64,000 nt of DNA from an uncultured Lachnospiraceae bacterium (lineage in GTDB: Bacteria > Bacillota > Clostridia > Lachnospirales > Lachnospiraceae): NCBI GenBank assembly GCA_947589155.1, contig CANQBH010000001.1, forward strand, positions 62,001-126,000, given 5' to 3'. The translations under genes were made by a program, and so were the position numbers. Below are positions 7,763 through 12,662 of this stretch, piece after piece. Numbering within the stretch: position 1 is the first letter of the stretch; each line of letters opens with the position of its first letter. Under the pieces are notes generated by a model, which was not told the origin of the DNA, did not search any database, and saw nothing but the letters and a program-made list of their open reading frames with translations.

Positions 7763-8944
7763 TCAGAAATCCCCGTTGTTGTAACGCTTGACAAGTTTGT
7801 GGATCCTCTCGTAAGGATCAAGCAGGCCGCTGATCGAGCAGTCGTGATTCAACGTGTCGATGATGTAAGCGATGTATTTGCTCATGTCGCAGTTGATGTA
7901 GTACGGACGCGCGAGCAGTTCCGGCGTCTGATAGGTCAGGTTGGTGGTGACGAGCCGGTAGATGACGCCGCTTTCCACCGCCTTGTCGAACTTGTCCAGC
8001 CCGTCGGTGAACAGGCCGAAGGTGGCAACGACGAAGATCCGGTTGGCCTTGCGCTTTTTTAATTCCGTCGCCACGTCGATCATGCTCTCTCCGGAGGAGA
8101 TCATGTCGTCCACGATGATGACGTCTTTTCCTTCGACGGAAGAACCGAGAAATTCATGGGCGACGATCGGGTTGCGCCCGTTGACGATCCGGCTGTAATC
8201 CCTTCTCTTATAGAACATTCCCATATCTACGCCGAGGACGCCCGCCATGTAAACGGCGCGGTTCGTGCCGCCCTCGTCCGGACTGATGATCATGAGATGG
8301 TCGTTGTCGATCTTTAAGTCCTTATCGTTCTTTAAGATGTTCTTAATGAACTGGTAAGCGGGCTGCACCGTCTCGAAACCGTTCAGCGGGATCGCGTTTT
8401 GTACGCGCGGATCGTGCGCGTCAAAGGTGATGATATTGTCGACGCCCATCGAGATCAGTTCCTGCAGCGCGATCGCGCAGTCTAAGGACTCGCGGGAGGA
8501 GCGTTTATGCTGGCGGCTTTCATAGAGGAACGGCATAATGACCGTGATCCGCTTTGCCTTGCCTTCGATCGCGGCGATAATGCGCTTGAGGTCGGCAAAG
8601 TGATCGTCCGGCGACATATGGTTCGTATGGCCGCACAGGGAATAGGTCAGGCTGTAATTCGTCACGTCTACGATCAAAAAGATATCGAGGCCGCGCACGG
8701 ATTGCAGGATCGTGCCCTTTGCCTCGCCGGAACCGAAACGCGGAACCTCGGCGTCTACGATATAACTGTTGCTCTTATAGCCGGCCATGGTGATGTGATC
8801 CAGATGATCGGCTTCCCGATCCGCCCTCCAGTTGACAAGGTACTTATCGACTTTGCAGCCCAGTTCCATGCAGCTTTTGAGAGGGATGATCCCAAGTTTT
8901 CCCACAGGCGTGCTTTCGGTCAGGAAAATTTCATCGTTTGGCAT
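7763..8944 (-). CDS. prs: Ribose-phosphate pyrophosphokinase-like protein (divergent, about 393 aa)
   Basis: PRPP-binding motif VIIVDDMISSGESMIDVA, FDAHDPRVQNA, ISPDEGGTNRA. Confidence 0.8.
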   Translation of the reverse strand: MPNDEIFLTESTPVGKLGIIPLKSCMELGCKVDKYLVNWRADREADHLDHITMAGYKSNSYIVDAEVPRFGSGEAKGTILQSVRGLDIFLIVDVTNYSLTYSLCGHTNHMSPDDHFADLKRIIAAIEGKAKRITVIMPFLYESRQHKRSSRESLDCAIALQELISMGVDNIITFDAHDPRVQNAIPLNGFETVQPAYQFIKNILKNDKDLKIDNDHLMIISPDEGGTNRAVYMAGVLGVDMGMFYKRRDYSRIVNGRNPIVAHEFLGSSVEGKDVIIVDDMISSGESMIDVATELKKRKANRIFVVATFGLFTDGLDKFDKAVESGVIYRLVTTNLTYQTPELLARPYYINCDMSKYIAYIIDTLNHDCSISGLLDPYERIHKLVKRYNNGDF

Positions 8945-8950
8945 AACTCA

Positions 8951-9952
8951 CTACTCCTTTGTTTCTTGTTTATGTGCTAAAGTCTGTTTGATCCGGATAT
9001 CGCTTCCGAAGAAGCGGATCGGCGTATAACTGCTGATGATGCGGGACGACGTGCGCTCCGAATACAGATCCCGAAGTTCTTTCATATCGAGATTGGTGGA
9101 GATCACGGTGGATCCGCCGCGCAGCAGCCGCTCGTTTAAGCAGAGGAACAACTGCGACGTGGTAAAGGAGTTGGAGAACTCCGTGCCCAGATCGTCGATG
9201 ATCAGAAGATCGCAGTCAAGGATCTGTTCGTGGGTCTCCGACGCGTCGGCGTCCTTGGAAAAGACGTTCTTCTCGAAGATCCGAAAGAGTTGGAACGCCG
9301 TAAAATAGATGACGGAGCATCCCTGATCCAGCAGCGCCCTTCCGATACAGTGGGAAAGGAACGTCTTGCCGGTGCCGGTATCGCCGTAGAGTAATAGATT
9401 ACCACCGCAGCGTTTGAAATTCTGCACAAAGATCTGTGCGGAATCGAAGGCATTATGGGCACATTCCAAAGAGGTCATGCCGCTTTTTTCGTCCCGCGCG
9501 CCGTCGTCGTAGAGATCGAAGCGAAAATGCGAAAAATCATGTCCGTCAGGCAGATCCGCCATCCGTGAGCGGGCGTAGAGCAGATCGATCGACGCCTGAA
9601 TCAGGCAGTGGCATTTCTGTCCGTTGATATAGCCGGTGTCTTTGCAGTCGGGGCAGCGGTACGGCGGCGTCAGGTAATCCGCCGGATAACCGGAGCCGGA
9701 CAGGAGCGTGAGGCGCTTCTGCCGGAGTTCCTGCAATTCCCGTTTCATGTGATCGACCGCGGAAGCGTCGCCGGATAACAACTGTTCGGCGCTTTGGGCG
9801 CAGAGTTCGGCGACCTTCTGATCAAGGCTTTCAAGTTCGGGAACGCGGAGATAGACTTCTTCTTCCCGTTCTCGGATCAAACGGCGGCGCTGCTGCTGCC
9901 GTTCCTGATAACCGCGCATGAGCGCGTCGTATTGCGTGTTGGTGAGTGCCAT
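8951..9952 (-). CDS. DnaC/DnaI-like ATP-binding helicase loader
   Basis: Walker A LLYGDTGTGKTFLSHCIG, Walker B LLIIDDLGTE, N-terminal zinc-binding-like CPDCKDTGYINGQKCHC. Confidence 0.85.
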   Translation of the reverse strand: MALTNTQYDALMRGYQERQQQRRRLIREREEEVYLRVPELESLDQKVAELCAQSAEQLLSGDASAVDHMKRELQELRQKRLTLLSGSGYPADYLTPPYRCPDCKDTGYINGQKCHCLIQASIDLLYARSRMADLPDGHDFSHFRFDLYDDGARDEKSGMTSLECAHNAFDSAQIFVQNFKRCGGNLLLYGDTGTGKTFLSHCIGRALLDQGCSVIYFTAFQLFRIFEKNVFSKDADASETHEQILDCDLLIIDDLGTEFSNSFTTSQLFLCLNERLLRGGSTVISTNLDMKELRDLYSERTSSRIISSYTPIRFFGSDIRIKQTLAHKQETKE

Positions 9953-9962
9953 GGTTTTTTCC

Positions 9963-11060
9963 TTATTTGCGTAGTAACTGCTGTTCTAACGCTTCGTAAT
10001 AATCATCGTCCTGCGGACGCTGATGGAAATTGTGGAAGCGGTTGTTGGCGGGACGGACGCTGAGGGAGGCGTTCGCCTTTTGCGCGGAGGCGGCGTGCGC
10101 CTGATCCAGCGTGCGGATCTCTTCCGGATGGCGGATGCCCTTTTCATGCCAACTGGTCAGGATGGAGTCGGCGTAACTGAAATTCGCCCTGCCGGTGTTG
10201 CTGATCGTGCGGGCGCAGGCTTCCGTGATGATGTCCAGAGTAAAGCCGTAAAGGCCCGTCCACTTTTCGATGAAGGCGATCTCCTTATCGATCAGGCTGC
10301 GGCCGGAGATCCCGAAGGCCTTCATGACCGCGTAATAGGTCTGCGAGTGGATGTTTGCGGACTGTCTTGCCTCATCCGCGCTGCGGATGTTTTCGTCCGC
10401 CCAGTTCAGCGCGACCTTGTTCATGTAGCGGATATTCGGATGCCCTTTGTCAATGCAGTATTCGATCAGGTATTCGATCAGATCGAATGGAAAATGCAGT
10501 TCGTCATACCAGTAGAAGATCGTATTGAGATCCGTTGAGGTCAGGGGCCGCTTTAGGTAAGTCTCGACCGCGTAGAGCAGATCGCCGACCTCGTTCTGCG
10601 ACTTGAAGGACAGGATCTTGTCCGCGGAGTAGACCGGCGTCTCGGAACGCGAAACGGGCGCCGCGGGTGCAGCAGGCGCAGGAATCGCGGCGGGCGCGGA
10701 GATCACAGCCGGAGCAGGGGACGCGGACGGCGCGGAAACGGAGAGCGCGGAAACGGACGACGCTTCCGGCTCAACGAAGCAGATTCCGGTCAGGTTGGAA
10801 TCGCAGTCGTATTCCAACTTTAACAGGTCAAGGTTCTCCCAGTAGGCGAGCGCGCGATGCACGTCGTTTTCCGTGTAGTGGAACTTGTCCGCCAAAGCGG
10901 AAATGGAAAAACGGCCCCCGCTCTGCTGGAGAAGGCGCAAAAGATACAGGTAGATCTTTACGAACTCCCCGTTAGCGTCCTGGATATAATGATCGATGAA
11001 AATATTCGGCACGGCGGTCGTGTGACGGCCGCGGTCGGTATGCAGAACAATATCTCCCAT
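9963..11060 (-). CDS. DnaD domain-containing replication protein
   Basis: DnaD-like tract (VGDLLYAVETYLKRPLTSTDLNTIFYWYDELHFPFDLIEYLIEYCIDKG); directly upstream of the DnaC-like gene. Confidence 0.8.
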   Translation of the reverse strand: MGDIVLHTDRGRHTTAVPNIFIDHYIQDANGEFVKIYLYLLRLLQQSGGRFSISALADKFHYTENDVHRALAYWENLDLLKLEYDCDSNLTGICFVEPEASSVSALSVSAPSASPAPAVISAPAAIPAPAAPAAPVSRSETPVYSADKILSFKSQNEVGDLLYAVETYLKRPLTSTDLNTIFYWYDELHFPFDLIEYLIEYCIDKGHPNIRYMNKVALNWADENIRSADEARQSANIHSQTYYAVMKAFGISGRSLIDKEIAFIEKWTGLYGFTLDIITEACARTISNTGRANFSYADSILTSWHEKGIRHPEEIRTLDQAHAASAQKANASLSVRPANNRFHNFHQRPQDDDYYEALEQQLLRK

Positions 11061-11121: not shown

Positions 11122-11176
11122 GTAAAAAGTAATCCCCAATCCCAGTAGAATCAAGGGTTGCGGTGGAATGCGATTT

Positions 11177-11185
11177 TGTGGATAA
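11177..11185 (-). promoter_or_regulatory. DnaA box
   Basis: TGTGGATAA on + = TTATCCACA on -, exact DnaA-box consensus. Confidence 0.65.
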
Positions 11186-11255
11186 GTGGAAAAAACAGCC
11201 AAAATTCGGGCATAAAAAATCCACAAGAGAAAGGAGATAAGTGCGCCCTTTCAAT

Positions 11256-11264
11256 TGTGGATAA
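11256..11264 (-). promoter_or_regulatory. DnaA box
   Basis: TGTGGATAA on + = TTATCCACA on -, exact DnaA-box consensus. Confidence 0.65.
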
Positions 11265-11273
11265 AGTGGACAA

Positions 11274-12662
11274 TCAAAGATCTAAAAGATGATCCCCAAT
11301 CGTTACAACGTCTCCCGCCCCCATAGTTATCAACAAATCGCCGTTCATACATTTTTTTTCTAAAAACGATTCGATTTCCGCAAACGTCGGGAAGTAATAA
11401 CACTCCGTGCCCGTTTCTTTTAATAAGGAAAGGATATCCTGCGAACTGACGCCGTAGACGTCCTGCTCGCGCGCCGCGTAGATATCCGCCAGCACGACGA
11501 TATCCGCGAGGGAGAGGGCTTTGGCAAAGTCTTTCAGGAAGGCTTTGGTGCGGGTGTAGGTGTGCGGCTGGAAGACGCAGATGATCCGGTCCCTGCCGTA
11601 ATTCTTTGCCGCGGTCAGCGAAGCCGTGATCTCGGTCGGGTGGTGCGCGTAGTCGTCGATAACGACCGCGCCGCGGTAGTCGCCCTTATACTGGAAGCGG
11701 CGGTCCGCGCCGCTGAAGCCGGAGAGGCCGAGGGCGATCTGTTCCCACGGAAGCCCCATCGTCAGGCAGAGCGCGATTACGGCGAGCGCGTTGCCGATAT
11801 TGTGGCGGCCCGGCACGTTCAGCCGGACGGCGGGCAGTTCGCCGCCGCAGAAAACCGGCGTAAATCCGCCGCAGCCCTTGTCGTAGGAAATGTCTTTGGC
11901 ATAGCAGTCAAAGTCCTCGGAAAAACCAAAGGTGATCACGCGGCAGTCCGTATCGGCGCAGAGTTCTTCATAGGAAGGGATCTCGCCGTTGATGATGAGC
12001 GCGCCGTCCGGTTTTGTGTTGGAGGCAAATCTGCGGAAGGAAGCGCGCACATCGTCCAGATCCTTAAAAAAGTCCATATGCTCCGCTTCCACGTTCAGGA
12101 TCACGCTGTATTTCGGGAAGAAGGAGTGATAACTGTTCGTGTATTCGCAGGCCTCCGTGATAAAGAGGTCGGAATCGCCGACATGGATGTTGCTGCCGAT
12201 CGAGCGGAGGATGCCGCCGACGGAGATCGTCGGGTCGTCGGTTCCGGCAAGGAACACCTGACTGGCCATGGAAGTCGTCGTCGTCTTTCCGTGCGTGCCC
12301 GCGACCGCGACGGAGCGCCCGTAGCGTTCCATGATCTGGCCGAGGAGTTCCGCGCGGGTCAGCATCGGGATCTTGAGCGCCGACGCTTTGGCGTATTCCG
12401 GATTGTCGGGACGGATCGCCGCGGTATATATGACATAATTCAGATCTTTGGTTATATTTTCTTCTGTTTGCGAATAAGATATAGAAGCCCCAAGACGGAC
12501 AAGCCGTTTGGTAAGATCGGACTCCCTTGTGTCGGAACCCGTGACCGTGTAGCCCATTTTTAAGAGGATCTCGGCAAGGCCGCTCATGCTGATGCCGCCG
12601 ATCCCGATAAAATGCACGCGCGCAGGTTTTGAAAAATCGATTTCGTACATAGTGGTTTCCAT
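11274..12662 (-). CDS. murC: UDP-N-acetylmuramate--L-alanine ligase
   Basis: VHFIGIGGISMSGLAEIL, AGTHGKTTTTSM, DDYAHHPTEI, QPHTYTRTKAF. Confidence 0.97.
   Translation of the reverse strand: METTMYEIDFSKPARVHFIGIGGISMSGLAEILLKMGYTVTGSDTRESDLTKRLVRLGASISYSQTEENITKDLNYVIYTAAIRPDNPEYAKASALKIPMLTRAELLGQIMERYGRSVAVAGTHGKTTTTSMASQVFLAGTDDPTISVGGILRSIGSNIHVGDSDLFITEACEYTNSYHSFFPKYSVILNVEAEHMDFFKDLDDVRASFRRFASNTKPDGALIINGEIPSYEELCADTDCRVITFGFSEDFDCYAKDISYDKGCGGFTPVFCGGELPAVRLNVPGRHNIGNALAVIALCLTMGLPWEQIALGLSGFSGADRRFQYKGDYRGAVVIDDYAHHPTEITASLTAAKNYGRDRIICVFQPHTYTRTKAFLKDFAKALSLADIVVLADIYAAREQDVYGVSSQDILSLLKETGTECYYFPTFAEIESFLEKKCMNGDLLITMGAGDVVTIGDHLLDL

What the first reader, a model, noticed from the sequence alone, without database searches (positions are those of the whole stretch)
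11160..11273. Two perfect DnaA boxes upstream of the dnaD-dnaC-like helicase-loader operon
TTATCCACA (minus) occurs exactly at 11177-11185 and 11256-11264, same orientation, with degenerate relatives between them (AGTGGAAAA just after the first box, AAATCCACA at 11217-11225). They lie upstream of a candidate promoter (TTCTCA-17-TATAAT) for the DnaD-like gene. Inference: DnaA regulates helicase-loader supply, or the site titrates DnaA.
Basis: partly seen in the sequence, partly recalled or inferred. Interest (0 to 1): 0.6.

Follow-up and report, generated by a model that had tools for sequence, protein, structure and literature searches.

The report
Conserved DnaA-box array before helicase-loader genes
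Gut bacteria of the order Lachnospirales carry, just in front of the genes that load the DNA-copying helicase, a row of landing sites for DnaA, the protein that starts chromosome copying, set at fixed distances from the promoter, so the starter protein probably controls its own partners' supply.

Summary
Both TTATCCACA boxes lie where stated, in the murC-dnaD intergenic region. In 105 unique orthologous regions from Lachnospirales, TTATCCACA is the most widespread 9-mer: 97 of 105 loci, 8.6 per kb against 0.041 per kb in flanks, 274 of 277 copies facing dnaD. Copies usually abut head to tail (9-bp repeat), unlike oriC of the same genomes (11-12 bp). There are two clusters. The proximal cluster keeps a 9-bp-quantised distance (60/69/78 bp) to a conserved extended -10 of the dnaD promoter. 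Loci without murC next door, mostly outside the order, lack the array. Best reading: DnaA binds here and controls the dnaD-dnaC-like operon. Binding and the sign of regulation are inferred, not shown; titration of DnaA is the main rival. The top 20 in-vitro B. subtilis DnaA regions do not include its helicase-loader genes, and no report of this array was found in the held papers. I rate it a new variant of a known kind.

The parts
11256..11264 (-). distal DnaA box TTATCCACA, whose ATCCACA is the 5' arm of the murC terminator stem
11265..11273 (-). decayed outer distal box TTGTCCACT, abutting the murC stop codon; TTATCCACA in 46 of 67 relatives
11213..11262 (-). intrinsic terminator of murC: hairpin 11219-11262 (-17.9 kcal/mol, z -3.1) plus T-tract
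11177..11185 (-). proximal DnaA box TTATCCACA, 78 bp upstream of the -10 hexamer
11185..11193 (-). degenerate neighbour TTTTCCACT overlapping the proximal box by one base
11141..11159 (-). near-palindromic element AACCCTTGATTCTACTGGG, conserved at about -61 relative to the -10 in 29 of 66 aligned promoters; also found near dnaA
11093..11121 (-). dnaD promoter TTCTCA-17-TATAAT with extended TG
9963..11060 (-). DnaD-like protein (Pfam DnaB_2, TIGR01446 DnaD domain)
8951..9952 (-). DnaC/DnaI-like AAA+ ATPase (NCBIfam NF005304 equivalog, ATP-binding protein), probable helicase loader
7763..8944 (-). ribose-phosphate pyrophosphokinase (prs), downstream gene on the same strand
11274..12662 (-). murC, upstream gene on the same strand

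Best explanation
The murC-dnaD intergenic region is a conserved DnaA-binding array that controls transcription of the helicase-loader operon (dnaD-like, dnaC-like, probably prs). DnaA would bind same-facing, mostly abutting boxes in two clusters. The proximal cluster lies about 60-90 bp upstream of the -10 in a fixed register, so DnaA would touch RNA polymerase or oligomerise towards it there; activation at low occupancy is judged slightly more likely than repression. The distal cluster is built into the murC terminator and would bind the same DnaA, strengthening cooperativity or separating murC transcription from dnaD. Shown: sequence, conservation, orientation, register, terminator covariation. 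Inferred: DnaA occupancy, effect on transcription and its sign, and operon structure.
For: TTATCCACA is the most widespread 9-mer, in 97 of 105 loci. There are 277 exact boxes in 32.2 kb against 30 in 726 kb of flanks, 274 of 277 facing dnaD, with spacing 9 bp 179 times and 12 bp 35 times. Distance from box end to -10 peaks at 60, 69 and 78 bp and is concentrated in one 9-bp phase. The outer distal box lies outside the RNA stem, yet each of its positions is 84-99% conserved. The exact abutting 18-mer occurs 50 times in 61 genomes with 0 reversed-control hits; 29 of the hits are next to murC, all but one of these also next to dnaD. In the 25 loci of the class sample with no murC match next door there is no forward exact box. 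The array is also lost where the intergenic region has collapsed (L039, L040).
Against: No binding or expression data. In G034 the distal array stayed with murC while dnaD lies about 1.7 kb away without boxes, so the distal cluster may have a role apart from dnaD. Boxes sit 60-80 bp upstream of the -10, further than simple steric repression needs. E. coli DnaA prefers box pairs 2-3 bp apart (PMC11317965), whereas here most abut with 0 bp. Some relatives lack exact boxes (8 of 105).
Confidence: 0.62

Rival explanations
1. DnaA reservoir or conversion site (datA/DARS-like): the array titrates DnaA or changes its nucleotide state, and the promoter is incidental.
For: Several consensus boxes in close spacing; the array persists next to murC in G034 without dnaD next door; other recurrent non-oriC arrays exist, e.g. 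NlpC/P60-hpf.
Against: The 9-bp-quantised fixed register to the dnaD -10 across genera and loss of boxes where the dnaD intergenic region collapses are not expected of a pure sink.
Confidence: 0.2
2. Another DNA-binding protein, not DnaA, reads the abutting 9-bp repeats.
For: 9-bp abutment is rare at oriC of the same genomes (2 pairs against 29 at 11-12 bp) and differs from the spacing E. coli DnaA prefers.
Against: The motif is the exact DnaA consensus, also present at the organism's oriC beside dnaA; 12-bp pairs also occur in the array.
Confidence: 0.08
3. Only terminator and promoter structure is conserved; the boxes are a by-product of the murC terminator stem.
For: One distal box is a stem arm in 84 of 105 loci by a simple hairpin scan; apical pairs covary, 361 of 414 canonical against 205 +/- 10 shuffled.
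Against: The outer distal box and the whole proximal array lie outside the stem and are conserved too; the box arms stay invariant while the rest of the stem varies.
Confidence: 0.03
4. Auxiliary replication origin or helicase-loading site.
For: DnaA boxes in a region more AT-rich than the genome (IG 41% G+C in the window).
Against: An oriC with DnaA boxes is at rnpA/rpmH-dnaA in the same genome; the array is far from dnaA in Blautia parvula (about 0.88 Mb by coordinates). An unwinding element was not looked for specifically.
Confidence: 0.04
5. Chance pair of boxes.
For: In this genome alone the excess over the reversed pattern is small (19 against 11).
Against: Conservation across the order.
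Confidence: 0.01

Closest known systems
B. subtilis DnaA-regulated promoters and DnaA-box clusters (sda/yqeG, ywlC, ywcI/vpr, gcp, yydA)
   Same: Multi-box arrays of TTATCCACA-type sites, mostly intergenic; DnaA boxes are needed for full activation of sda (PMC4447404).
   Different: None of the top 20 in-vitro B. subtilis DnaA regions in Table 1 is at dnaD or dnaB-dnaI; here the target is the helicase-loader operon, with abutting boxes and a terminator-embedded box.
E. coli double DnaA boxes (purH, polA, DARS2)
   Same: Paired boxes bound outside oriC (PMC11317965).
   Different: E. coli prefers 2-3 bp gaps; here the gap is mostly 0 bp.
E. coli nrdAB promoter
   Same: DnaA boxes at a replication-supply gene; DnaA may activate or repress (PMC8203912).
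   Different: Different gene, lineage and layout.
datA/DARS
   Same: Non-oriC box clusters.
   Different: Here a fixed register to a promoter; partner-protein sites not tested.

Membership tests
DnaA-regulated promoter | two or more DnaA boxes upstream of the promoter, conserved among orthologues | tested here: met
DnaA-regulated promoter | constant geometry relative to the promoter | tested here: met
   60/69/78 bp register
DnaA-regulated promoter | DnaA binds the site | not testable with these tools
   needs EMSA or ChIP
DnaA-regulated promoter | expression responds to DnaA | not testable with these tools
   needs reporter or RNA-seq
E. coli-type double DnaA box | 2-3 bp gap between boxes | tested here: not met
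   9-bp repeat (0-bp gap) 179 pairs, 12-bp repeat (3-bp gap) only 35 pairs
datA/DARS-type titration or conversion site | box cluster outside oriC | tested here: met
datA/DARS-type titration or conversion site | acts on DnaA level or nucleotide state; partner-protein sites | not tested
   no assay; no partner-site search
oriC | located at dnaA/dnaN | tested here: not met
   between murC and dnaD; dnaA elsewhere
intrinsic terminator (distal cluster) | stem-loop followed by T-tract, with compensatory changes | tested here: met

The most novel reading that the evidence does not exclude
A composite DnaA-responsive terminator-promoter. Abutting boxes would guide a distinct DnaA oligomer on duplex DNA, unlike the one at oriC. 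It would both act at the murC terminator and set dnaD promoter output, tying helicase-loader supply (and possibly readthrough from a cell-wall gene) to DnaA availability, with a second palindrome-binding factor shared by oriC and this promoter.
Probability: 0.15. Interest if true: 0.78.

Novelty: new variant of a known kind. Interest (0 to 1): 0.6.

Why it matters
If true, the initiator controls the supply of the proteins that act immediately after it, in a bacterial order abundant in the gut whose replication control is little studied. It supplies a precise, testable promoter geometry and an abutting-box arrangement that differs from oriC and from the E. coli preference, so it bears on how DnaA oligomers form on duplex DNA.

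Tried and rejected
Chance was rejected by conservation. Explaining the boxes as only terminator stem was rejected by the conserved outer distal box and proximal array. An auxiliary origin is disfavoured by position. TTATCAACA inside murC (11327-11335) recurs in relatives at a constant place but was set aside because it lies in conserved murC coding sequence. The primary B. subtilis DnaA-regulon paper (Goranov 2005) is not held, so whether nrdR-dnaB-dnaI responds to DnaA there was not checked. Papers joining DnaA boxes, Lachnospiraceae and oriC: none in the held library; searches for the murC-dnaD pair and for a comparative DnaA regulon gave nothing on point.

Full report
Observation. TTATCCACA is present on the minus strand at 11177-11185 and 11256-11264, between murC (11274-12662) and a DnaD-domain gene (9963-11060), followed on the same strand by a DnaC/DnaI-like AAA+ gene and prs. 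The own draft genome has 19 exact boxes (reversed control 11); the only other close pair lies by dnaA. From this genome alone the case would be modest.

Conservation. Thirty relatives already showed same-facing boxes before dnaD. With 80 further Lachnospiraceae loci I built 105 unique murC-dnaD intergenic regions of 100-700 bp. Exact boxes: 277 in 32.2 kb (8.6 per kb) against 30 in 726 kb of flanks (0.041 per kb); 274 of 277 face dnaD; 97 of 105 loci have one, 85 have two or more; pair spacing (up to one mismatch) is 9 bp 179 times and 12 bp 35 times. A blind 9-mer count puts TTATCCACA first. Sequences are only de-duplicated by identity, so relatedness remains in these counts, but DnaD identity to the window falls to about 30% in the alignment used. 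The flanks are mostly coding, which the density comparison does not correct for; orientation, spacing and register do not depend on it.

Distribution. In 61 genomes the abutting 18-mer has 50 hits and no reversed-control hit; 29 hits lie next to murC, 28 of these also next to dnaD. Order-level relatives keep boxes in part. In a class-wide sample the 25 loci with no murC match next door (two of them from the same order) have no forward exact box. Where the intergenic region is collapsed (L039, L040) boxes are absent. In G034 the distal array stays with murC while dnaD lies about 1.7 kb away without boxes.

Anatomy. The distal cluster begins at the murC stop codon (first box at offset 3 in 55 loci, 4 in 20). 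In most loci a distal box provides ATCCACA as the 5' arm, and TGTGGAT followed by Ts is the 3' arm, of a terminator (84 of 105 by a simple scan). Apical stem pairs covary (361 of 414 canonical against 205 +/- 10 shuffled), while the 9-mer just outside the stem is still TTATCCACA in 46 of 67. In the window the hairpin folds at -17.9 kcal/mol, z -3.1. The proximal cluster ends about 60, 69 or 78 bp before a conserved extended -10 (TATGCTATAAT) with TTCTC at the -35; in the window the distance is 78 bp. The promoter alignment was anchored on the -10 by a motif rule, so conservation of the -10 itself is partly by construction, but the box register is not. The window's neighbouring slots are 2-mismatch remnants, so this genome carries a reduced array.

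Comparison with oriC. Around dnaA in 29 relatives, close same-strand pairs are mostly 11-12 bp apart (29 pairs), with 2 at 9 bp. E. coli DnaA prefers boxes 2-3 bp apart (PMC11317965). The abutting layout is therefore unlike both.

Interpretation. Conservation, orientation and register favour DnaA control of the dnaD-dnaC-like operon. Binding, sign and operon structure are inferred. Titration is the main rival. Known precedents for DnaA as a regulator include sda and nrdAB (PMC4447404, PMC8203912); the top 20 in-vitro B. subtilis regions do not include dnaD or dnaB-dnaI. No held paper combined DnaA boxes, Lachnospiraceae and oriC, which limits but does not prove novelty.

Taxonomy. Nearest named loci are uncultured Roseburia sp. 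MAGs (56-59% DnaD identity); the window is taken to be Lachnospiraceae by this inference.

Noticed in passing
L054, L060, L062, L069, L072, L073; own genome L008 near 1501: A second recurrent non-oriC DnaA-box module: a box, about 44 bp, often with TTATACAC in between, then tandem boxes. It lies before hpf in several genomes, next to an NlpC/P60 gene in some; L008 looks like a degenerate copy.
   Followed up: partly
11141-11159 and dnaA-flanking regions of L080-L109: Near-palindrome AACCCTTGATTTTACTGGGTTT sits about -61 from the -10 in 29 of 66 dnaD promoters and is enriched beside dnaA (12 sites against 0.7 in dinucleotide shuffles). Exact copies of its core also lie in terminator-like hairpins and near recombinase-like genes. 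Binding factor unknown.
   Followed up: partly
murC-dnaD intergenic regions of relatives, about 60-135 bp after the murC stop: Motif GTTTACATAA/GTTTCCATAA in 34 of 105 loci; unknown role.
   Followed up: no
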